The position numbers and the translations under genes are program-made. The notes beneath the pieces were generated by a model. That model was not told the origin of the DNA. It saw only the letters and a list, made by a program, of their open reading frames with translations, and did not search any database. From Spirirestis rafaelensis WJT71-NPBG6 (GTDB taxonomy: Bacteria > Cyanobacteriota > Cyanobacteriia > Cyanobacteriales > Nostocaceae), in contig JAHHID010000025.1 in the NCBI GenBank assembly GCA_019359015.1, forward strand, positions 1 through 42,104: 42,104 nt of DNA. The letters are read 5' to 3'. Below, piece after piece: positions 8,678 to 37,213 of this stretch (the stretch's first letter is position 1; every line of letters starts with the position of its first letter).

Positions 8678-10834
8678 TCAGCCATCGTTAGACGCATCGA
8701 GATCCATAGAACCGCGACGGCGACGACGACGTTTGTCAACAGGGGCACTGTTAGCTTCAGTTTCATCCACAATCGTGGCAAAACCCGATGGCTGAGTTGA
8801 ATTCTCGGTAAACAATTCCAGTTGTGGTTCAGGTTGTGGTTCTGGTTGTGGTTCTGGTTGTGGTTCTACTTTTGGCTCAACCTTCTTAATTGGAGTTACT
8901 CCACTACTTACTCTTTCCGGAATACTTACTCTTTCAGGAGCAGTTGATTCGGAAATACTTACTCTTTCGGGAGTGCTTACTTCTGAGGTAAATTCAGGCG
9001 GTGTAGCGGGAGTTTGTCCTGGTGGAGTGACGTTAATAATCACAGACTTGGGATTTTTAACTTCCCGATTCAAGCGCACTAAGGGAGAAATTCCCATCAA
9101 AGCGAAAACATCCTGTTCTTCAGATGTCATTTCTACAGAAACAATCTCCGGTGGTTCTACCACTGGTTTGACTGGTTCGCCCTTAGTGATTTTTATCCGC
9201 TCTGTTCTATCAGTCCAAGGAGCTTTGCTAATGCTAGGCGAGGATATTTCTGGAGTTGCTGGTAGTTCGGGTTCGTTATCAATTTCTAAGTCTGGCTCGT
9301 TGACAAAAGACAGCGGATTGGTAATTAGCCGTGGCTCTTCTTTGCCGTTGCCCCCATTTATACTAATCCGACGACGCCTGCGTACACCACCGCCACGCTT
9401 GTTATCCCCTATCTCTTGATAGCTGGGATGATTTAGATTCAGGGGATTCAATTCCGAGTCAGCATCTAATCCTTCGCCAAATGCATCGTAGCTTTCCCGT
9501 CGATCCGTCAAGCTGGTTGCTGGCAAACGCGGTTCTTTATGGGGCAAAGATACAAAACGCTCTGGTAATTCTGCTGGTGTTGGCAACCTGTTTTCAGTTT
9601 CTCCCGGCAGATGTAGTATATGCCCTAAACCACCACAGGTAGGACAAGTTTGACCAAACAATTCGTAGATGTTTTGCCCTTGACGTTTGCGGGTGAGTTC
9701 TACCAAGCCCAGTTCGGTTAGTTGAGCAATCTGGGGACGAGCTTTGTCTGCTTTGAGAGCTTTGTTGAAATGTTCTAGAACCTGCAATTGATCGCGCCGC
9801 GATTCCATATCGATGAAATCGACAACTATCACCCCAGCAACATTTCGCAGACGTAGCTGGCGGGCAATTTCGGTTGCGGCTTCGCAGTTGGTCCACAGAA
9901 CGGTTTCTCTAGCTGTTGCCGATCGCGTAAATGAACCTGAGTTGACATCTATCACTGTTAATGCTTCTGTTGGCTCAATGATGATGTAGCCTCCAGAAGG
10001 TAGGTCAACTCTTGGTTTGAGAGCCTCGCGAATTGCGGCATTTATGCGGAAGTATTCTAATATCCCAGAGCGATCGCGATGATGGTCAATCAACAATCCT
10101 TGTGGTGTCTGCCCACCACTCCAGTTTTGCAAGTACTGCTTCACCCGCTTCAAACCAGTACTCGAATCAACCACAATCCGATTCACATCCGCGCCATACA
10201 TATCTCGCAGCACGCGCTGAATAAAATCATCGTCTCGATTCAGCAGTGCTGGTGCGCGGGTAGATTGAGCTTCTTGTTGGATTGCTTCCCACTGCTTTTG
10301 CAGCACTTCTAAATCTTCGATAATCGCTTCTTCTGGCTTGCCTTCGGCTTCGGTGCGAACTAGCAAACCCATTCCTGCGGGTTTAATTAAAATCGCCAAC
10401 GCCCGCAACCGGTTACGCTCGTTTTCACTCTTAATCCGACGGGATAAATTTACACCTCGCCCATAAGGCATCAGCACTACATAGCGCCCTGGCAAGGTGA
10501 TATTACCTGTGAGCCTCGGTCCTTTGGTACCTGTTGGCTCTTTCATTACTTGCACCAACACTTTTTGCTGTGGTGTCAGTAGTTCTGTAATTGCCGCTGC
10601 GGTACGCTTCAGCTTTAATGGTCCTAAATCAGTTACATGAATAAAGCCGTTGCGCTCTGGATCTCCTATATTGACAAAAGCCGCATCAATCCCAGGTAAG
10701 ACATTTTCTACCACCCCTAAATAAATATCACCTATTTGGTGATGACCGGTGGCGACTACGAGTTCTTGTATTTGATCTTCGGAAAAGACCGCAGCAATCT
10801 GATGCTGTTCCGCGATTATAATTTGTTTTGGCAT
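8678..10834 (-). CDS. rne: Ribonuclease E/G
   Basis: A 718-residue endoribonuclease, the main initiator of mRNA decay. The catalytic half (about 1-410) contains an S1 RNA-binding domain (about 35-115), the magnesium ligands Asp296 in TVIDVNSGSF and Asp339 in VVDFIDM, and the zinc-link CPTCGG at 397-402 that joins dimers. The rest is low-complexity and basic, as usual for the cyanobacterial enzyme, with a PEPQ tandem run around residue 670. Near the end, residues 702-707 are six arginines. In cyanobacterial RNase E a C-terminal arginine-rich nonapeptide recruits polynucleotide phosphorylase, so this is probably that site. Downstream of the radical SAM gene and 15 bases upstream of rnhB. Confidence 0.97.
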   Translation of the reverse strand: MPKQIIIAEQHQIAAVFSEDQIQELVVATGHHQIGDIYLGVVENVLPGIDAAFVNIGDPERNGFIHVTDLGPLKLKRTAAAITELLTPQQKVLVQVMKEPTGTKGPRLTGNITLPGRYVVLMPYGRGVNLSRRIKSENERNRLRALAILIKPAGMGLLVRTEAEGKPEEAIIEDLEVLQKQWEAIQQEAQSTRAPALLNRDDDFIQRVLRDMYGADVNRIVVDSSTGLKRVKQYLQNWSGGQTPQGLLIDHHRDRSGILEYFRINAAIREALKPRVDLPSGGYIIIEPTEALTVIDVNSGSFTRSATARETVLWTNCEAATEIARQLRLRNVAGVIVVDFIDMESRRDQLQVLEHFNKALKADKARPQIAQLTELGLVELTRKRQGQNIYELFGQTCPTCGGLGHILHLPGETENRLPTPAELPERFVSLPHKEPRLPATSLTDRRESYDAFGEGLDADSELNPLNLNHPSYQEIGDNKRGGGVRRRRRISINGGNGKEEPRLITNPLSFVNEPDLEIDNEPELPATPEISSPSISKAPWTDRTERIKITKGEPVKPVVEPPEIVSVEMTSEEQDVFALMGISPLVRLNREVKNPKSVIINVTPPGQTPATPPEFTSEVSTPERVSISESTAPERVSIPERVSSGVTPIKKVEPKVEPQPEPQPEPQPEPQLELFTENSTQPSGFATIVDETEANSAPVDKRRRRRRGSMDLDASNDG

Positions 10835-23229: not shown

Positions 23230-24723
23230 TTACAAGGCTGGTGCTGGGAGTGGTTTTGCTGGTGCTGACAGCGGATCTATCCCACCTTGCGCGACTTCAA
23301 ACTGACTCATCATGTCGTGGTCTTCGTGAACCATATTATGGCAGTGGTACATGTACTTGCCTATGTTTGGTCTAAACTTGCCAATTATTCTTACCGTCTC
23401 GTTTTCACCAACGTAGAACACATCTTTCATACCACGTTCGTAAGCAAAAGGTGGCTGACCGTTACGGTCGAGAATTTGAGCGTCAATTAGGTGAAGATGA
23501 ACCGGATGAAACCAAAGACCGGAGTTATTATGCAACGTCCAAATCTCGATTTGTTCTAATTCGGGATTAGCATCAACTCGGTTTATGTCCCAAACATTGC
23601 CGTTGATTACCCACAATCGATTAGTGTGCTCAAATGTAAAGTCACGCGATCGCACTGCTGAAGATTCTGGAAAAAATTCAATATTGCGTAGTGTGCTAGG
23701 AATAGAGCTGTTATCGCTCTCTTCACGTACCACATCAAAGCGCATAATCTTATTTGTGTTGCCGGTATTATCATTGTTAGGAAGTCCCAGATTTTGCAAT
23801 ACTACTTGGGTTCCTAAAGGATATTTAGAAAAATCGATTATCAAATCATAGCGCTCTGCCATGCCAATACGCATCTCTTTAGTAGTTACTGGTGCAGACT
23901 TTAATCCAGCATCAGTACCAATTACGATCAAGTCATCACCCGTATCCAGAGCAAGTTTGTAAGACCGGGAAATTGATGCGTTTAACACCCGGAAGCGGTA
24001 CTTGCGGTTTGCTACCTCCATACGGGGATAAGGAACACCGTTGACTGTAATCACATCACCCATCAAACTGTGTTGAGCTTGATCATCAAAAATTAGTGAA
24101 CCGTCAGCCGCGAATTTTTTATCGTGAATGATTAAGGGAACATCATAATCATTCTTGGGAAGTGGCAGATTAAGTTCATTTTCATCTTCGACAATATACA
24201 TTCCCACCAGCCCCATGTATACGTTTCGCGAAGTTTGATGAACTGCGTGGTCATGATACCACATAGTGGCAGCGTTGGTGTTGGGATAGATATAGTCTTT
24301 GTAATATCCTTGAGGAATTAAATCCTCAGCGTAACCATCGTACTGGGGTAGCGATACCATCCCATGCAGGTGAACTACGGTTGGTGTACCAACATCATTA
24401 ATAAAGCGTACAACTGACTGCCGATTTTTACGTTGTCTAATTGTCGGACCGGGAAATGTACCGTTATATCCCCAAATTTCTGTCGTTCGCCCTGGTAACA
24501 TTTCTACAGTAGCTTTCTGTATTCTTATCTGGTAATAATCAGTTGTGGAATCGCTACGTACAGGATTTAACACTGGTGGGGTGCGAAAGGCAAGTGTAAA
24601 CGGTTCGACTCTCTCATCGGTTCTCTGAGCATATCCGCGATGCTGAAATAGTACGGGTAGCATCATAGAACAACCGGCAAAACCTACAAACATCAAGGCT
24701 TCACGTCTGCTAATTTTATTCAT
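23230..24723 (-). CDS. Tat-exported multicopper oxidase
   Basis: A 497-residue multicopper oxidase (CotA/bilirubin oxidase/laccase type) that couples one-electron oxidation of phenols, bilirubin or metal ions to reduction of oxygen to water. The start at 24723 gives MNKISRREALMFVGFAGC, a twin-arginine signal (SRRE) before a hydrophobic stretch, so export to the periplasm is expected; an upstream in-frame ATG at 24783 would bury it. All four copper motifs are present: VHLHGM, MWYHDHAVHQ, FHPVHLHL and HCHNMVHEDHDMM, the last with the axial methionine. It stands alone, divergent from the caspase-WD40 gene, across tandem repeats. Confidence 0.93.
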   Translation of the reverse strand: MNKISRREALMFVGFAGCSMMLPVLFQHRGYAQRTDERVEPFTLAFRTPPVLNPVRSDSTTDYYQIRIQKATVEMLPGRTTEIWGYNGTFPGPTIRQRKNRQSVVRFINDVGTPTVVHLHGMVSLPQYDGYAEDLIPQGYYKDYIYPNTNAATMWYHDHAVHQTSRNVYMGLVGMYIVEDENELNLPLPKNDYDVPLIIHDKKFAADGSLIFDDQAQHSLMGDVITVNGVPYPRMEVANRKYRFRVLNASISRSYKLALDTGDDLIVIGTDAGLKSAPVTTKEMRIGMAERYDLIIDFSKYPLGTQVVLQNLGLPNNDNTGNTNKIMRFDVVREESDNSSIPSTLRNIEFFPESSAVRSRDFTFEHTNRLWVINGNVWDINRVDANPELEQIEIWTLHNNSGLWFHPVHLHLIDAQILDRNGQPPFAYERGMKDVFYVGENETVRIIGKFRPNIGKYMYHCHNMVHEDHDMMSQFEVAQGGIDPLSAPAKPLPAPAL

Positions 24724-24922
24724 GGTAGTGTCCCCTGTCTCAAACGGCAGTACGAACTTTGCTTGTTTGAAAGCAGTCAACAAAGATTTTCTCTATATAA
24801 ATTATGTCAAAAGATATATGACAAGACGCTTAAGTTAATTTAAGTAATAATACTAAGTATTAAGTATGAATTTTTGTATTCGTTTTTCTCAGCAGACAAC
24901 TATGTTGTTTAAAAAAACAGAA

Positions 24923-24978: not shown

Positions 24979-25209
24979 AACTCGGAACTTTGTGCTTGGA
25001 ACTCGAAACTTCGTGCTCGGAACTCGGAACTTCGTGCTCAGAACTCGGAACTTCGTGCTCTGAACTCGAAACTTCGTGCTCAGAACTCGAAACTTCGTGC
25101 TCGGAACTCGGAATGTCGTGCTCAGAACTCGAAATGTCGTGCTCAGAACTCGAAACTTCGTGCTCTGAACTCGGAATGTCGTGCTCGGAACTCGAAACTT
25201 CGTGCTTGG
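24979..25209. repeat. 21-bp tandem repeat array, 11 units
   Basis: Eleven contiguous 21-bp units, each beginning AACTCGGAAC or AACTCGAAAC, followed by TTCGTGCTC and a variable dinucleotide (GG, AG or TG). Because 21 is a multiple of three and the units lack stops, three frames stay open and give artificial heptapeptide repeats. The same repeat in the same orientation lies downstream of the caspase-WD40 gene at 29987-30100. Confidence 0.9.
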
Positions 25210-25269
25210 AACTGCAACAACCGAGATCCAAAGGTGAATGATGGTAACAGACAACTCTAATATCTATAG

Positions 25270-28200
25270 ATGGCTCGTTACGCGCTTGTTGTTGGCATTA
25301 CAGATTACAAAAGTCCGATTAACAACCTCACAAAACCAGCTACAGATGCAGAAGCGGTACAACAGGTACTAAAAGCGCATGGTGATTTTGAGGATATTGC
25401 TGTTCTCAAAGGGAAAGTTAGTACAACTAAGTTGGCTGAAGCTTTAAAAACACTTTTGCAACAACAAGCAGTTAAAAACGAAGCTCTAATTTACTTTACA
25501 GGGCATGGCATCACCGTATCTGACAGCTTAGGAGCACAACAAGCATATCTAGCAACCTCTGACTTGACAATTGTCACTCAAGGCAAGGAAATTATTGAAC
25601 AAACAGGCGGGATTAATCTTCTGAGTCTGAACAATTTAATTAGAGACTCCGACCTGAGTAGTCTAGTAGTGCTGTTAGATTGCTGTCATAGCGGTGAATT
25701 TTTAGAACGCAATCTCATCGAAAAAACTCTTACTGCCTTTATTTCACAGCGCGATTACTACTTTATTGCTGCTTGCAGAGGTTTTCAACAAGCCTATGCC
25801 AAAAAAAGCGCACAACACAGTATTTTTACAACAGCTTTGCTGGCTGGTTTGTCACCAGAGAACACTAACGATCGCGGACAGGTGACAGGCGATCGCCTTT
25901 TCGATATACTTGCCACAGAACTCAAAGGTAGTGGACAAGAACCAATCCGCATGGGTTGGGGGCGTTCGATTACTTTAATTACCCACAACAATCAAACACA
26001 AGCTGAAACCTTTGAGGTAAAGGAAGAATGTCCTTACCAAGGTTTAAAAGCATTTGAAGCGGAACAAAAACAGTTTTTCTTTGGACGCCAGCAGGTTATA
26101 AGGACGATTCTGGGGAAACTGGCAGAAAAGCCCTTTGTTTCGATTATTGGCGCTTCCGGGAGTGGTAAATCTTCTGTAGTTCAGGCGGGTTTGGTTCCAG
26201 AATTAGATCGTAGTGTCTGGCAAATTTTACCGCCAATCAAGCCAGGATTTCAGCCTTTGCAGGAATTGCGAGGAGTTCTGAAAGCATTTTTTCCAGGCGC
26301 GAAAAAAGAAAGATTGCTTTGGGAGTTGATTACTCAAGAACCGAATCCTTTACCTGTAATTTTGCAGCATCTCACAGGTGCAGAAAAATTTTTATTGGTA
26401 GTAGATCAGTTTGAGGAACTATTTACTGTTGCAGTTGCTGAAGACAAGCAGAGATTTATTGAATTGCTGACTCAGGTAGTAGAGATGACCGATTCGCGGT
26501 TGAAAGTTGTGATTACCATGCTATCGGATTTTCTCGAACCATGTTTAGACTATCCCTCTTTAAATAAATTGATTGAAAATCAGCTTGTTTTGATGCCGCG
26601 TATCACAGGAGTTGATTTAAAAGAGACAATAACCGAACCAGCTAAACTTCAAGGTCATAGTGTTGAAGAAAGATTAGTACTGAAAATTTTAGAAGATGTT
26701 GGTAAAGAACCGGGATATTTGCCGTTAATGGAGTTTGCTTTAACTAGACTCTGGGAAAAACGCGACCAACAAAAGCATCAACTCACTTTAGAACAGTACG
26801 AAAACTTCCAAGGATTGACAGGAGCGCTGAATTTTCATGCAGAAAATGTTTATTTTTACGAAGATTATCAGCAGGATTCCCCGACTCATGAACGAAATGA
26901 ACAAGAGAAAGACTGGATTAAGCAAATTTTCCTGCGATTAGTGCGAACGGGAGAGGGAGAAAAGGACACCCGACAGCGCCAACCAAAAGCTGAACTATTA
27001 GCCATTGCTGGTAATGACCAAAAACAGCAGCAAGCATTAAGTGAATTGCTAGATGAAGGATTGGTGAAAGGACGTTTGCTGGTTGCTGGCAAAGATGAAC
27101 AAGGAAAAGCTTGGATTGATTTAGCCCATGAAGCTTTAATTGATGGTTGGCAGCGGTTTGCCCAATGGCGACAACAAGACCGAGATTTGCGGCGATTACG
27201 TGATAAATTAGCCGATGCCTTGCGAGAGTGGTTGCACAAAAAAGAAGATGAACAATACCTCATGCCAAGAGGACTGTTAGCAGAGGTGCGGGACAATTGG
27301 GAAAAGTTACAACCTGATTTATCATCGCAGGCTAAAAAGTTTTATCAGTGCAGTGATGCCGATGAAAAAGAACGGAATGCCGAACGGCAATTTGCTCTCA
27401 GAGTCCGCATTGAAGACTTTTTGCAAAAGAAAACAGCAAATATTAAGAAAATACTTCCTGCCCAACCCCTCACAGCTTCGGTTATGGCAATACAAGTCAT
27501 AGGTGAGAATCTGGAGAAAATGCCAGAGCAAATTCTCACTCCAGTTCAGAATAGCCTGCAACAAGCGATAAAGGTCTTAACTCCCTTCCGTGGTCATGAG
27601 GGTGGCGTCATTTCTGTCGCCATTAGCGCGGATGGGCAGACGATTGTCAGTGGGGGTGGTGACGGCACAGTGCGGTTGTGGAATTTCCAAGGTCAGCTTT
27701 TGGCTGAACCCTTCGGTAGTCATCAGGATACGGTCTGGTCTGTCGCCATTAGCGCGGATGGGCAGACGATAGTCAGTGGGGGTGGTGACGGCACAGTGCG
27801 GTTGTGGAATTTCCAAGGTCAGCTTTTGGCTGAACCCTTCCGTGGTCATGAGGGTGGCGTCTATTCTGTCGCCATTAGCGCGGATGGGCAGACGATTGTC
27901 AGTGGGGGTGGTGACGGCACAGTGCGGTTGTGGAATTTCCAAGGTCAGCTTTTGGCTGAACCCTTCGGTGGTCATGAGGGTGGCGTCTATTCTGTCGCCA
28001 TTAGCCCGGATGGGCAGACGATTGTCAGTGGGGGTGAAGACCGCACAGTGCGGTTGTGGAATTTCCAAGGTCAGCTTTTGGCTGAACCCTTCCGTGGTTA
28101 TCAAGGTCAGGTCAATTCTGTCGCCATTAGCCCGGATGGGCAGACGATTGTCAGTGGGGGTTATAACGGCACAGTGCGGTTGTGGAATTTCCAAGGTCAG

Positions 28201-29598
28201 CTTTTGGCTGAACCCTTCGGTGGTCATCGGGGTCAGGTCAATTCTGTCGCCATTAGCCCGGATGGGCAGACGATTGTCAGTGGGGGTTATAACGGCACAG
28301 TGCGGTTGTGGAATTTCCAAGGTCAGCTTTTGGCTGAAGCCTTCGGTGGTCATCGGGGTCAGGTCAATTCTGTCGCCATTAGCCCGGATGGGCAGACGAT
28401 TGTCAGTGGGGGTGGTGACGGCACAGTGCGGTTGTGGAATTTCCAAGGTCAGCTTTTGGCTGAAGCCTTCGGTGGTCATCGGGGTCAGGTCAATTCTGTC
28501 GCCATTAGCGCGGATGGGCAGACGATTGTCAGTGGGGGTGGTGACGGCACAGTGCGGTTGTGGAATTTCCAAGGTCAGCTTTTGGCTGAACCCTTCGGTG
28601 GTCATGAGGGTGGCGTCTATTCTGTCGCCATTAGCGCGGATGGGCAGACGATAGTCAGTGGGGGTGGTGACGGCACAGTGCGGTTGTGGAATTTCCAAGG
28701 TCAGCTTTTGGCTGAACCCTTCGGTGGTCATGAGGGTGGCGTCTATTCTGTCGCCATTAGCGCGGATGGGCAGACGATAGTCAGTGGGGGTGGTGACGGC
28801 ACAGTGCGGTTGTGGAATTTCCAAGGTCAGCTTTTGGCTGAACCCTTCGGTGGTCATGAGGGTGGCGTCTATTCTGTCGCCATTAGCGCGGATGGGCAGA
28901 CGATAGTCAGTGGGGGTGAAGACGGCACAGTGCGGTTGTGGAATTTCCAAGGTCAGCTTTTGGCTGAAGCCTTCGGTGGTCATCGGGGTCAGGTCAATTC
29001 TGTCGCCATTAGCCCGGATGGGCAGACGATTGTCAGTGGGGGTGAAGACGGCACAGTGCGGTTGTGGAATTTCCAAGGTCAGCTTTTGGCTGAACCCTTC
29101 GGTGGTCATGAGGGTGGTGTCAATTCTGTCGCCATTAGCGCGGATGGGCAGACGATTGTCAGTGGGGGTGGTGACGGCACAGTGCGGTTGTGGAATTTCC
29201 AAGGTCAGCTTTTGGCTGAACCCTTCGGTAGTCATCAGGATACGGTCTGGTCTGTCGCCATTAGCCCGGATGGGCAGACGATAGTCAGTGGGGGTTATAA
29301 CGGCAGAGTGCGGTTGTGGAATTTCCAAGGTCAGCTTTTGGCTGAACCCTTCGGTGGTCATCGGGGTCAGGTCAATTCTGTCGCCATTAGCCCGGATGGG
29401 CAGACGATTGTCAGTGGGGGTGAAGACGGCACAGTGCGGTTGTGGCGGGCTGACTGGCGTGCATGGTTGCAAGTCTGTTGCGACAGGTTGCGTTACCATC
29501 CCATCTTCACCAATCCGCAAACAGAGGAAGCAAAAGCCGCTTGCGAAGTCTGCCGTAAATATGTTTGGAGTAAAGAAGAAGTTAAAAGCGGGGATTAA
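25270..29598 (+). CDS. Caspase - STAND NTPase - WD40 protein
   Basis: A 1442-residue signalling protein. Residues 1-240 form a caspase-like C14 peptidase domain with the catalytic histidine in YFTGHG (His79) and cysteine in LLDCCHSG (Cys139 the likely nucleophile). An nSTAND1-type NTPase starts at CPYQGLKAFEAEQKQFFFGR (from 254), with Walker A GASGSGKSS (294-302) and Walker B FLLVVDQFEELF (374-385). A helical region leads to 15 WD40 repeats of exactly 42 residues (775-1392; the last breaks off after VRLW), then a short tail with WLQVCCDRLRYHPIF. The plan is that of NLR-like sensors: propeller binds a trigger, NTPase oligomerises, protease acts. That role is inference. A TAG just before the ATG fixes the frame start. 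All catalytic residues are present. Confidence 0.93.
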   Translation: MARYALVVGITDYKSPINNLTKPATDAEAVQQVLKAHGDFEDIAVLKGKVSTTKLAEALKTLLQQQAVKNEALIYFTGHGITVSDSLGAQQAYLATSDLTIVTQGKEIIEQTGGINLLSLNNLIRDSDLSSLVVLLDCCHSGEFLERNLIEKTLTAFISQRDYYFIAACRGFQQAYAKKSAQHSIFTTALLAGLSPENTNDRGQVTGDRLFDILATELKGSGQEPIRMGWGRSITLITHNNQTQAETFEVKEECPYQGLKAFEAEQKQFFFGRQQVIRTILGKLAEKPFVSIIGASGSGKSSVVQAGLVPELDRSVWQILPPIKPGFQPLQELRGVLKAFFPGAKKERLLWELITQEPNPLPVILQHLTGAEKFLLVVDQFEELFTVAVAEDKQRFIELLTQVVEMTDSRLKVVITMLSDFLEPCLDYPSLNKLIENQLVLMPRITGVDLKETITEPAKLQGHSVEERLVLKILEDVGKEPGYLPLMEFALTRLWEKRDQQKHQLTLEQYENFQGLTGALNFHAENVYFYEDYQQDSPTHERNEQEKDWIKQIFLRLVRTGEGEKDTRQRQPKAELLAIAGNDQKQQQALSELLDEGLVKGRLLVAGKDEQGKAWIDLAHEALIDGWQRFAQWRQQDRDLRRLRDKLADALREWLHKKEDEQYLMPRGLLAEVRDNWEKLQPDLSSQAKKFYQCSDADEKERNAERQFALRVRIEDFLQKKTANIKKILPAQPLTASVMAIQVIGENLEKMPEQILTPVQNSLQQAIKVLTPFRGHEGGVISVAISADGQTIVSGGGDGTVRLWNFQGQLLAEPFGSHQDTVWSVAISADGQTIVSGGGDGTVRLWNFQGQLLAEPFRGHEGGVYSVAISADGQTIVSGGGDGTVRLWNFQGQLLAEPFGGHEGGVYSVAISPDGQTIVSGGEDRTVRLWNFQGQLLAEPFRGYQGQVNSVAISPDGQTIVSGGYNGTVRLWNFQGQLLAEPFGGHRGQVNSVAISPDGQTIVSGGYNGTVRLWNFQGQLLAEAFGGHRGQVNSVAISPDGQTIVSGGGDGTVRLWNFQGQLLAEAFGGHRGQVNSVAISADGQTIVSGGGDGTVRLWNFQGQLLAEPFGGHEGGVYSVAISADGQTIVSGGGDGTVRLWNFQGQLLAEPFGGHEGGVYSVAISADGQTIVSGGGDGTVRLWNFQGQLLAEPFGGHEGGVYSVAISADGQTIVSGGEDGTVRLWNFQGQLLAEAFGGHRGQVNSVAISPDGQTIVSGGEDGTVRLWNFQGQLLAEPFGGHEGGVNSVAISADGQTIVSGGGDGTVRLWNFQGQLLAEPFGSHQDTVWSVAISPDGQTIVSGGYNGRVRLWNFQGQLLAEPFGGHRGQVNSVAISPDGQTIVSGGEDGTVRLWRADWRAWLQVCCDRLRYHPIFTNPQTEEAKAACEVCRKYVWSKEEVKSGD
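27592..29445 (+). repeat. 15 near-identical 126-bp WD40 units
   Basis: Fourteen complete 126-bp units and a fifteenth of 90 bp lie head to tail within the caspase gene. They differ only at a few codons: the turn after GH (HEGGV, HRGQV, HQDTV, YQGQV), Ala or Pro before DGQ, the GGDG/GEDG/GYNG segment, and Pro or Ala before FG. Silent differences are almost confined to one isoleucine codon (ATT or ATA). This is a sign of recent amplification or gene conversion. Confidence 0.95.
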
Positions 29599-29677
29599 TG
29601 AGAAGAAAACAGGATTAATAAACCTCTAAGAGTACTCCAAGTAAAAAAATGCCCAATTGTCCGCAGCGAATGGAGCA

Positions 29678-29726
29678 AAGTGTAGCAAAGCAATCGCAAA
29701 GTCTTTGAGATTGCTTTGCTACACTT
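29678..29726. repeat. Perfect 18-bp inverted repeat
   Basis: Arm AAGTGTAGCAAAGCAATC at 29678-29695 pairs perfectly with 29709-29726. The 13-base loop itself contains CAAA-GTC-TTTG. It stands 80 bases after the caspase-WD40 stop and could serve as a terminator or RNA-stabilising structure, though no T-run follows. Confidence 0.8.
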
Positions 29727-29799
29727 CTCTACGAGACGCTACCGCGAATGTTTCGCTCGCAATGACGGGTTTTGGATCATTTATTTTTTGGAACACTCT

Positions 29800-29933
29800 C
29801 AATACGGTTCGGTTAAGGCAAGAGACGCGATAAATCGCCGTCTCTACAAAAAACTGATTATTGTAAAGACGGCGATTTATCGCGTCTTTGTGATCTATAA
29901 TTTTCATCAAAAAATATTATCCGAACCGTATTG
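29800..29933. mobile_element. MITE-like element with target duplication
   Basis: A 134-bp element bounded by perfect 13-bp terminal inverted repeats CAATACGGTTCGG (29800-29812) and CCGAACCGTATTG (29921-29933). It is flanked on both sides by the direct repeat GGAACACTCT (29790-29799 and 29934-29943), a 10-bp target-site duplication. Inside is a second perfect 21-bp inverted repeat (29823-29843 with 29867-29887) around AGACGCGATAAATCGCC. It has no coding capacity, so it must depend on a transposase elsewhere; the long duplication would suit an IS4-like enzyme, but this is a guess. Confidence 0.8.
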
Positions 29934-29986
29934 GGAACACTCTAATCTCCAATGTTGAGGCTCAAAACTCCCATTTTCACCTTCAG

Positions 29987-30100
29987 AACTCGGAATGTTG
30001 TGCTTGGAACTCGGAATGTCGTGTTTTGAACTCGGAAGTTTGTGTTCGGAACTCGGAAGTTTGTGTTCTGAACTCGGAAGTTTGTGTTCTGAACTCGGAA
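29987..30100. repeat. 21-bp tandem repeat array, second copy
   Basis: Five full 21-bp units and a 9-base partial unit, each starting AACTCGGAA and continuing TGTTGTGCTT or GTTTGTGTTC. They match the array at 24979-25209 in length, phase and orientation, with internal drift. The array stops abruptly at the boundary with the palindrome-rich repeat. Confidence 0.88.
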
Positions 30101-32276: not shown

Positions 32277-32900
<624 letters not shown>

Positions 32901-33729: not shown

Positions 33730-33891
33730 ATATCTTATGCTGTGTCAATGTGTAGGATAAAACTAAAGCGCTAAAAATGAAAGTTGTTTTTTGTGCTTAT
33801 CCTTATATTAAAGACAATCAGAAGATTTGGACATCTACCCACACAGCTTTTATCAAGGGCTACTTGACAGCGACCAATAAGCTAACAATTA

Positions 33892-34038
33892 CTAACTTTT
33901 CCTCACTTTCTTTGACAGATCGCGAACAAACTCACGCAGCACATCTGATTTAGTCCTTGAAACCTGCTTGCAGTATGCGTCCAATAAGTCGAGTTCTTCT
34001 TGCGGAATCCTTATTGTTAGCTTCTTTTCGTCTTTCAT
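33892..34038 (-). CDS. Small ribbon-helix-helix protein
   Basis: A 48-residue frame read by eye: it starts MKDEKKLTIRIPQEELDLLD and continues AYCKQVSRTKSDVLREFVRD. KLTIRIPQEELDLLDAYCK is the beta-strand plus first helix of a CopG/Arc-type ribbon-helix-helix DNA-binding fold, and SRTKSDVLREFVRDL is the second helix. It starts 29 bases from tnpB in the opposite direction, so the two share one promoter region, and such a protein could bind there to repress both. Small RHH genes divergent from tnpB also occur in other cyanobacterial elements, to my knowledge. Confidence 0.72.
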   Translation of the reverse strand: MKDEKKLTIRIPQEELDLLDAYCKQVSRTKSDVLREFVRDLSKKVRKS

Positions 34039-34067
34039 TGTCTGTCTATATGCTGTACAATGTAAAT

Positions 34068-35243
34068 ATGCTACTAGGATTTAAGACCGAACTCAAGATT
34101 AACAACAAACAACGCACTCATTTGTTAAAACATTCTGGCGTGGCTCGTCATGCTTGGAATTGGGGACTGGCTTTGACCAAACAAATTCTTGACCACAACA
34201 AAGCAAACCCTGGTTCCAAAATCAAATTTCCTAGTGCTATTGACCTGCATAAATGGTTAGTAGCATTAGTGAAATCTGAAAATGAATGGTACTATGAATG
34301 TTCTAAAAGTACGCCACAGCAAGCATTAATGGCTTTGCGTGAATCTTGGAAACGTTGTTTTAATAAGACTGCTGGTGTTCCAAAGTTCAAGAAAAAAGGT
34401 AGACGCGACTCTTTCACACTTGAAGGCACAGTCAAAATCTTAGGAAACAACAAGATTCAAGTACCTGTGATTGGTGTACTCAAAACCTATGAGCGTTTAC
34501 CACAGATTAAACCAAAATCTGTCACGATTAGCCGTCAAGCTGATAGATGGTTTATCAGTTTTAGGTTTGAAACAAAAACTCAAGACCTAGGCAATGCGGA
34601 TGTTGTCGGCGTTGACTTAGGAGTAAAAGCACTAGCTACTCTGTCTACTGGTGAAGTAATTATAGGTGCGAAGTCCTACAAGAAATACGAAGCCAAGTTA
34701 AGCAGAATGCAGTGGTTGCATCGTCATAAAATCATCGGTTCCGCTAACTGGAAGAAAGCGAGTGTGCAGGTTGCCAGATTGCATAGAAAGATAGCCAACA
34801 TCCGCTCATGTACATTGCACAAGCTCACCACACTGTTAGCCAAGAACCACGGAACAGTAGTGATTGAAGACCTCAATGTATCTGGCATGATGGCTAATCA
34901 TAAAATGGCTAAGGCAATCGCTGACATGAGTTTGTTTGAGTTTCGCCGCCAATTGACTTACAAGTGCGAACTGTATGGTTCAAAGCTGGTAGTAGTTGAC
35001 CGTTGGTTTCCATCCAGCAAAATTTGTTCTCAATGTCGAACAAAGAAAAAGTCACTATCGCTTCAAGAGCGTGTTTTTAAATGTGAACACTGCGGGTTTC
35101 AATGTGACAGAGACTTAAACGCCGCGGTTAATCTCAAAAACGCGGCGAGTCACGCCGTGTCAGCTTGTGGACTGGTGAGTGCCGACACTACCAGGATGAA
35201 GCAAGAAGATTTCAGTTTGTTAGCAAACGTTAGTAAATTATGA
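34068..35243 (+). CDS. tnpB: TnpB RNA-guided nuclease
   Basis: A 391-residue TnpB of IS200/IS605-type elements, the ancestor of Cas12. TnpB proteins are RNA-guided DNA endonucleases that use an RNA from the element's right end. The RuvC-like residues are present: Asp183 in VVGVDLGVKALA, Glu267 in VVIEDLNVSGM and the last aspartate in DRDLNAAVNL (about 349). A zinc ribbon sits between them (Cys320, Cys323, Cys339, Cys342). The ATG at 34068 was chosen because the frame upstream runs antisense over the RHH gene; the protein then begins MLLGFKTELKINNKQRTHLL. No frameshift or lost residue was seen. The guide RNA probably overlaps the 3' end. Confidence 0.9.
   Translation: MLLGFKTELKINNKQRTHLLKHSGVARHAWNWGLALTKQILDHNKANPGSKIKFPSAIDLHKWLVALVKSENEWYYECSKSTPQQALMALRESWKRCFNKTAGVPKFKKKGRRDSFTLEGTVKILGNNKIQVPVIGVLKTYERLPQIKPKSVTISRQADRWFISFRFETKTQDLGNADVVGVDLGVKALATLSTGEVIIGAKSYKKYEAKLSRMQWLHRHKIIGSANWKKASVQVARLHRKIANIRSCTLHKLTTLLAKNHGTVVIEDLNVSGMMANHKMAKAIADMSLFEFRRQLTYKCELYGSKLVVVDRWFPSSKICSQCRTKKKSLSLQERVFKCEHCGFQCDRDLNAAVNLKNAASHAVSACGLVSADTTRMKQEDFSLLANVSKL

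Positions 35244-37213
<1,970 letters not shown>

What the first reader, a model, noticed from the sequence alone, without database searches (positions are those of the whole stretch)
25270..29598. Caspase-NTPase-WD40 sensor protein with intact catalytic residues
The sequence shows a caspase dyad (His79, Cys139), a complete STAND-type Walker A and B, and 15 WD40 units in one protein. Family knowledge links such architecture to NLR-like signalling, where a variable propeller senses a trigger and the protease executes a response. A role in phage defence or programmed cell death is inference. It is the best candidate in the window for an undescribed system.
Basis: partly seen in the sequence, partly recalled or inferred. 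Interest (0 to 1): 0.75.

Follow-up and report, generated by a model that had tools for sequence, protein, structure and literature searches.

The report
NLR-like caspase sensor missing its partner
A cyanobacterium carries a protein built like our own cell-death and immune sensors (a caspase-like protease, an ATP switch and a fast-changing WD40 sensor ring); such proteins are already known in cyanobacteria, but most relatives of this one have a small partner gene beside it that has been cleanly deleted from this copy.

Summary
In detail: one 1442-aa ORF (25270-29598) has a C14 caspase domain with His79/Cys139, an nSTAND1 NTPase with Walker A and B, and 15 WD40 units of exactly 42 aa. "Undescribed" is not: cyanobacterial metacaspases with 7-15 WD40 repeats, two with NACHT, were listed in 2010, and near-identical WD40 propellers on STAND proteins are published. 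Added here: (1) Units are homogenised within each gene, while variation piles up at columns that I equate with the four codons under diversifying selection in fungal HET-D/HET-E receptors (7 of 8 arrays). (2) In 25 of 30 relatives a Trypco1-like gene lies divergently just upstream; in print Trypco1 is tied mainly to trypsins. (3) The window copy lost that gene by a clean 495-bp deletion, and Leu replaces a near-invariant arginine (418) of the ATPase. (4) The gene sits at different places in related genomes, with 21-bp repeat tracts on both sides in the window and in Hassallia. Best reading: an NLR-type proteolytic conflict sensor of a known kind, here a partnerless, possibly signalling-impaired copy. 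Phage defence or cell death is untested inference.

The parts
25270..29598 (+). caspase - nSTAND1 NTPase - WD40 protein, 1442 aa
25270..25929 (+). caspase (C14) domain, residues about 1-220; His79 codon 25504-25506, Cys139 codon 25684-25686
   Evidence: Pfam 3-198; NCBIfam 4-219, below its cut-off; dyad present wherever a relative has a letter there
26032..27252 (+). nSTAND1 NTPase domain, residues 255-661; Walker A at 294, Walker B at 375
26521..26523 (+). codon 418: Leu (CTA) where 30 of 32 aligned sequences have Arg (CGA in L040); sensor-1-like position, a label that is recalled
   Evidence: Arg in the 8 of 10 fetched own-genome paralogues in which the motif was found
27253..27579 (+). helical linker between NTPase and WD40 array
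   Evidence: predicted helices
27583..29472 (+). 15 WD40 units of 42 aa; codons 8, 26, 10 and 6 of the unit vary most
29449..29595 (+). conserved C-terminal tail
25244..25245 (.). junction of a 495-bp deletion relative to Hassallia L040 9481-9975, which removes the Trypco1 gene and 42 of the 67 bp between the two genes
24979..25213 (.). 21-bp tandem repeat tract upstream; matching tract in L040 before Trypco1
29982..30100 (.). 21-bp tandem repeat tract downstream; such a tract directly follows the gene in 6 of 9 relatives with downstream DNA
29630..29939 (.). about 310-bp insertion between gene end and downstream tract, absent in the same 6 relatives; inverted repeats, MITE-like by eye only

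Best explanation
It is a cyanobacterial NLR-type receptor. The WD40 array (probably two propellers; 14 blades typical, 15 here) binds a variable trigger, the nSTAND1 ATPase switches and oligomerises on ATP, and the N-terminal orthocaspase is thereby brought together and cuts target proteins, stopping or killing the cell. The repeats are kept alike by recombination within the gene, while a few contact residues per blade stay diverse, so specificity can change fast. In the family the gene is normally one half of a divergent pair with Trypco1, which I take to be an adaptor or regulator. The window copy is derived and partnerless: Trypco1 and most of the shared intergenic region were deleted, and the ATPase has an unusual Leu at 418, so its signalling is probably altered or disabled although the protease site is intact. 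Shown here: domains, residues, homogenisation, site-specific variation, partner conservation, deletion, different positions in related genomes. Inferred: oligomerisation, trigger, protease target, outcome, role of Trypco1, effect of Leu418.
For: Domains. His79 in 31 of 31, Cys139 and Lys300 in 32 of 32, Asp379 in 31 of 31 aligned sequences with a letter there, window included. Foldseek of the N-terminal model lists MALT1 paracaspase, caspase-9, Orc1/Cdc6, plant NLRs, Apaf-1 and Avs4 among its 50 shown rows. WD40 model: 2ymu and Apaf-1 lead. Columns 8, 10, 26, 28 exceed random column sets in 7 of 8 arrays tested, permutation p 0.0001-0.014, window 0.00035. Nearest unit in the same gene for 104 of 131 units, 11.4 expected. 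Trypco1-like gene upstream and divergent in 25 of 30 relatives. Deletion junction. N part under purifying selection, dN/dS 0.19-0.38.
Against: No trigger, target or phenotype is known. One array (L041) shows no excess at the four columns (p 0.50), and column 28 is not among the window's eight most variable ones. Units are not independent because recombination copies them, so the p values are descriptive; in the window pN/pS is above 1 outside the four columns too (1.69). The N-terminal model has low overall confidence (pTM 0.37) and its fold matches have TM-scores by query length of about 0.16-0.24. dN/dS of the window against relatives (0.24-0.32) shows no relaxed constraint, which speaks against a disabled copy. 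PADLOC gives a generic caspase model, a repeat-driven HEAT-ARM model and weak P-loop matches.
Confidence: 0.6

Rival explanations
1. The receptor is an allorecognition (kin recognition) sensor, as HET-D/HET-E in Podospora: it senses variants of a conspecific protein when filaments meet or exchange material, rather than a phage.
For: Same unit length (42 aa), within-gene homogenisation and matching variable columns; close homologues are in Nostoc, Hassallia and other Nostocales, filamentous by recalled knowledge. PMC10907252 raises kin recognition as an alternative for DGR-diversified conflict systems (passage).
Against: No polymorphic ligand gene was sought; protection against phages is the role shown for bacterial STAND proteins (passage).
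Confidence: 0.2
2. The window copy is a dying gene: loss of Trypco1, of most of the intergenic region and of Arg418 mark a pseudogene on the way out.
For: Deletion; Leu418; the other homologue without Arg418, L025, also has no Trypco1 upstream and is only 649 aa, too short for a WD40 array.
Against: Open frame of 1442 codons, conserved catalytic residues, dN/dS 0.24-0.32 against relatives; no window residue departs from a column that is invariant in all 28 other full sequences.
Confidence: 0.25
3. Housekeeping scaffold or signalling protein without a role in conflict.
For: WD40 proteins often act as scaffolds (recalled); orthocaspases have been linked to oxidative stress and photosynthesis (titles and abstract starts).
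Against: Patchy presence (13 of 58 related genomes at E<=1e-80), different genome positions and variation at contact columns.
Confidence: 0.08

Closest known systems
Cyanobacterial beta-family metacaspases with WD40 repeats (cbMC-beta, PMC2853523)
   Same: Caspase p20 plus 7-15 WD40 repeats, two with an annotated NACHT (passages)
   Different: The passages seen give no nSTAND1, no Trypco1 partner and no site-specific variation
WRAP, Npun_R6612 of Nostoc punctiforme (PDB 2YMU)
   Same: STAND protein with 14 near-identical WD40 blades; best sequence and fold match of the array
   Different: WRAP has 10 point mutations over 14 blades; here blades differ at many contact columns. Its operon partner is a TIR-STAND protein, in other cyanobacteria sometimes with an added caspase
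Podospora HET-D/HET-E (HNWD) NLRs
   Same: 42-aa WD40 units homogenised within the gene; positive selection at codons 7, 9, 25, 27 around conserved positions 8 and 26, which I take to be my V9 and D27, so the codons are my columns 8, 10, 26, 28
   Different: HET effector and NACHT in a fungus; repeats are exchanged between paralogues there, whereas no other locus of this genome matched the unit DNA
Apaf-1 / apoptosome
   Same: STAND ATPase and WD40 sensor controlling a caspase; fold match of the WD40 model
   Different: Apaf-1 recruits caspase-9 through CARD (recalled); here the protease is in the same chain
Avs and other bacterial antiviral STAND proteins
   Same: Effector - STAND - repeat sensor plan; Avs4 among the fold matches
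   Different: Other effectors (nucleases) and sensors that bind conserved phage proteins
Trypco1 conflict modules (PMC7159879; PMC10907252)
   Same: Trypco1 neighbour: the L042 protein matches PF19493, E 2e-18. One passage lists Trypco1/2 and trypsin- or caspase-like peptidases together around DGR loci
   Different: Kaur et al. describe Trypco1 beside trypsins and an alpha/beta-hydrolase beside caspases; the divergent pair with a caspase-STAND-WD40 protein is not in the passages seen

Membership tests
STAND / NLR-type receptor | P-loop STAND NTPase domain with Walker A and B | tested here: met
   PF20703 E 1.8e-104; motifs
STAND / NLR-type receptor | conserved arginine after the strand that follows Walker B (TxR; label recalled) | tested here: not met
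   Leu418 in the window; Arg in 30 of 32 aligned sequences
STAND / NLR-type receptor | N-terminal effector and C-terminal repeat sensor in one chain | tested here: met
STAND / NLR-type receptor | nucleotide-dependent oligomerisation | not testable with these tools
   needs purified protein
cyanobacterial WD40 metacaspase (cbMC-beta) | caspase p20 domain with His/Cys dyad plus WD40 repeats | tested here: met
   family described in the passages
EACC1-caspase system | caspase over the NCBIfam cut-off (140 bits) | tested here: not met
   NF047832 96.1 bits
VMAP / MoxR-vWA ternary system | MoxR ATPase and vWA protein next door | tested here: not met
   none in the Pfam results of the 20 neighbouring window ORFs scanned (45 ORFs of 100 aa or more are listed)
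Trypco1-paired module | divergent Trypco1 gene upstream | tested here: not met
   present in 25 of 30 relatives, deleted in the window; the L042 protein finds nothing in the own genome, the family search finds two distant members elsewhere in it
fungal HNWD-like diversifying receptor (works like) | excess variation at the four contact codons of the unit | tested here: met
   7 of 8 arrays tested, window included; not L041; column 28 weak in the window
fungal HNWD-like diversifying receptor (works like) | repeat exchange between paralogues | tested here: not met
   own-genome search with one unit finds only this gene

The most novel reading that the evidence does not exclude
Trypco1 is the restraint of a caspase-STAND-WD40 death switch (a toxin-antitoxin-like, divergently transcribed pair), and the window is a natural escape: the restraint was deleted and the switch is tolerated only because its ATPase carries Leu at the arginine position. 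The two aligned sequences of 32 without that arginine (window Leu, L025 Gln) are both among the five of 30 loci (window included, fragment L053 left out) without Trypco1 upstream; chance 0.023, found after the fact.
Probability: 0.13. Interest if true: 0.72.

Novelty: new variant of a known kind. Interest (0 to 1): 0.45.

Why it matters
It ties a bacterial caspase-STAND-WD40 receptor to the kind of contact-codon diversification that drives fungal self/non-self recognition, and it names a conserved partner (Trypco1) that can be tested. A natural deletion of the partner next to a changed ATPase residue hints at what the partner may do.

Tried and rejected
Fusion of Trypco1 to the receptor: an early reading of several '-' strand loci; rejected when the loci were turned, all 25 hits are divergent and upstream. 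The residue table was wrong for seven loci for the same reason and is replaced.

Relocation junction cutting off Trypco1: rejected. The window keeps the same upstream repeat tract as L040, 58 of the last 60 bases before the junction, so it is an internal deletion.

Gain of Trypco1 in relatives: rejected because it stands in the same place in relatives whose Trypco1 is only 31-51% identical.

Exchange of WD40 units with paralogues: no unit elsewhere in the genome. Nine fetched paralogues have lower within-array identity, mean nt 0.42-0.77 against 0.91.

Inverted repeat in the divergent intergenic region: seen by eye in L040 and L047, weaker in others; not pursued. Papers on Apaf-1 R265: six listings, none opened.

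Phage and plasmid collections: no close homologue; in plasmids all 168 records are under 60% identity, best of the 15 rows shown 37%; in phages 3 records match the STAND part only. Profile search of PDB sequences with the N part at E<=0.01: only three UvrA P-loop matches.

Dropped before counting: L054-L057 (Nocardia, caspase only, 26-27%), L022 (same contig as L040), L046 (contig starts inside the gene; no upstream DNA). L053 (fragment) counts as a miss in the 25 of 30 but is left out of the count of 30 loci with the arginine. One search used 8 of 12 arrays (L040, L044, L046, L049 left out: few or irregular readable units) and dropped the last unit of each except in L041; the unit reader missed some units (L043 13 of 14, L049 10 of 14, L041 8 of 9, L040 4 of 6). 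One search scored at most 17 candidates a genome.

Full report
What is there. The ORF at 25270-29598 (+) encodes 1442 aa. Pfam gives Peptidase_C14 at residues 3-198, nSTAND1 at 255-661 and WD40 with 15 stretches. His79 (FTGHG) and Cys139 (DCCHSG), Walker A (GASGSGKS, 294) and Walker B (LLVVDQF, 375) are present, and the 15 WD40 units are spaced by exactly 42 aa. The DNA is a 126-bp tandem array with 94% matches. I take the large antisense ORFs over the array to be by-products of the repeat.

Relatives. A scan of genome contigs returned 18 loci: 14 in Nostoc, Hassallia, Roholtiella and Mastigocoleus by record title, and 4 in Nocardia with a 26-27% caspase match only, which I left out. In the family search 14 of 59 genomes, the own one included, have a match at E<=1e-80, that is 13 of 58 relatives. 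In the aligned N parts of 32 sequences (window included) His79, Cys139, Lys300, Asp379, Glu382 and Glu383 are invariant wherever there is a letter. dN/dS among the ten closest N parts is 0.19-0.38, and 0.24-0.32 for the window against the others. The own genome holds 15 Peptidase_C14 matches and 23 nSTAND1 matches, 18 over the cut-off, so this gene is one of many such proteins.

The sensor. In arrays without a gap or contig end the unit number is 15 (window, L042), 14 (L043, L045, L047, L049, L050), 13 (L048) and 5 (L044). L046, cut at its 5' end, has 6; L040 has a run of N; L041 and L052 end in the array. Five of nine own-genome paralogues examined also have 14. Fourteen blades make two seven-bladed propellers in WRAP (passages of PMC6805158 and PMC9218822). 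The window's 15 would allow 7+8, as in Apaf-1 (blade numbers recalled); an Apaf-1 structure has the higher TM-score for the model (0.48 against 0.36 for 2ymu), 2ymu the better E-value, and the model itself has pTM 0.52. Published work warns that short-read assemblies omit or create such repeats (passages of PMC12222747), so I do not lean on the number 15.

Homogenisation and hot columns. Mean identity between units is 91% in DNA in the window, 0.42-0.77 in nine own-genome paralogues. For 104 of 131 units from 12 arrays the nearest unit lies in the same gene (11.4 expected); in 4 it is the unit of the same rank in another gene. In the window columns 8, 26, 10 and 6 vary most; column 28 is not among its first eight. 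In Podospora, codons 7, 9, 25 and 27 are under strong positive selection around the conserved positions 8 and 26 (passage of PMC1805685). I take these conserved positions to be my V9 and D27, from the wording and not from an alignment, which makes the fungal codons my columns 8, 10, 26 and 28. These four columns exceed random sets of four in 7 of 8 arrays (p 0.0001-0.014; window 0.00035), not in L041 (p 0.50). Diversity at hotspot sites of highly repetitive WD40 proteins is known in general (passage of PMC5587647); the match to the fungal codons in this caspase family is what I add. Units are not independent, and in the window pN/pS is 1.69 outside the four columns too, so this is a description, not a formal selection test.

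The partner. In 25 of 30 relatives with upstream DNA a match to the L042 Trypco1 protein (PF19493, E 2e-18) starts 1-313 bp upstream on the other strand, 66-67 bp in nine close loci; the match is partial in L052 and in a few distant loci. The matches were found by tblastn and not each checked with the Pfam model. Of the five without it, L033, L037 and L039 have divergent ORFs that look alike by eye, L025 has an unrelated gene, and L053 is a fragment. Kaur et al. describe Trypco1/2 next to trypsins and alpha/beta-hydrolases next to caspases (passages of PMC7159879). PMC10907252 lists Trypco1/2 adapters and trypsin- or caspase-like peptidases together around some DGR loci (passage), so nearness of Trypco1 to caspases as such is in print. 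Two searches for the name found only these two relevant papers; the divergent pair with a caspase-STAND-WD40 protein is not in the passages I saw. Figures and supplements were not read.

The window lost it. The window and L040 share the end of the upstream 21-bp tract (58 of 60 bases), then the window jumps across 495 bp (L040 9481-9975), which hold Trypco1 (9556-9933) and 42 of the 67 intergenic bases, and continues 25 bp before the ATG. The L042 Trypco1 protein finds nothing in the own genome. The family search finds two distant members there: one directly before a paralogue on C75 that begins like a trypsin (my reading, with weak serine-protease matches) and one on C40; the same search does find the Hassallia gene. 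In the window residue 418 is Leu (CTA) against Arg (CGA) in L040; Arg stands in 30 of 32 aligned sequences (L053 doubtful), Gln in L025, and Arg in the 8 of 10 fetched own-genome paralogues in which the motif was found. That this is the STAND sensor-1 arginine is recalled from the motif, not tested. Both sequences without Arg lack Trypco1 upstream (found after the fact, 0.023).

Position. Of 29 other window ORFs compared with the 14 loci, matches were only the repeat ORF, a 33% TnpB piece in L043 and orf17806 in L051. At the window's site G001 has 1.6 kb instead of 7.3 kb between the flanking genes. G004 has there a stretch of about 180 bp that matches both window tracts at 76-81%, although the strict motif scan did not flag it; the G002 contig begins inside a tract. 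At the Hassallia site the own genome has about 100 bp instead of 6 kb, without a tract. Tracts lie on both sides of the gene in the window and in L040, and a downstream tract follows the gene directly in 6 of 9 relatives. Recombination between tracts would explain the moves; this is inference. The repeat also occurs on five other contigs of the own genome (up to 3 mismatches).

Structure. The N-terminal model (13 sequences, pTM 0.37, mean pLDDT 72.8) finds MALT1, caspases, Orc1/Cdc6, plant NLRs, Apaf-1 and Avs4 with good E-values but low TM-scores, which agrees with caspase plus STAND. A profile search of PDB sequences finds no close solved relative.

Verdict. An NLR-type protease receptor of a known cyanobacterial kind, with a diversifying sensor and a conserved Trypco1 partner that this copy has lost. 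How it works in the cell is inference.

Noticed in passing
L041 5058-8249; L042 14842-18669; L048 5048-8353; L050 5228-8416: Near the intact receptor lies a paralogue that lost the caspase core and the P-loop (about 30 N-terminal residues run straight into the Walker B region) but keeps the rest of STAND and a WD40 array (11-14 units by a simple motif; 18 and 14 Pfam stretches in L042 and L041). Frames open, dN/dS 0.31-0.41. Possible sensor-only decoy or regulator.
   Followed up: partly
L041, L042, L047, L048, L050, L052, about 0.3-0.8 kb from Trypco1: A conserved 157-aa gene stands on the far side of Trypco1 in 6 loci; the L042 copy has no Pfam or NCBIfam match.
   Followed up: partly
own genome contig C40, L140 5053-5352: A second, distant Trypco1 lies about 1 kb from a SWI2/SNF2-type helicase that matches PADLOC ZorD, DpdE and DrmD models.
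   Followed up: partly
window 33857-35247: TnpB (IS605 OrfB) element; in G001, G002 and G004 the flanks are nearly contiguous, so it looks like a recent insertion.
   Followed up: partly
window 23230-24783: Multicopper oxidase gene; no blastn match at the same site in G001 and G004.
   Followed up: no
L044 1024-1336: About 246 extra bases with matching inverted ends inside the Trypco1/receptor intergenic region.
   Followed up: no
L033, L037, L039 upstream: Relatives without Trypco1 have a different divergent gene instead, similar to each other by eye.
   Followed up: no
L108 2841-6983 (own genome contig C9): Another STAND-WD40 paralogue with 14 units, at least two identical in DNA (maximum identity 1.00).
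   Followed up: no
window 32731-32855: Tandem array of the 7-mer AGGAGTC, about 18 copies.
   Followed up: no
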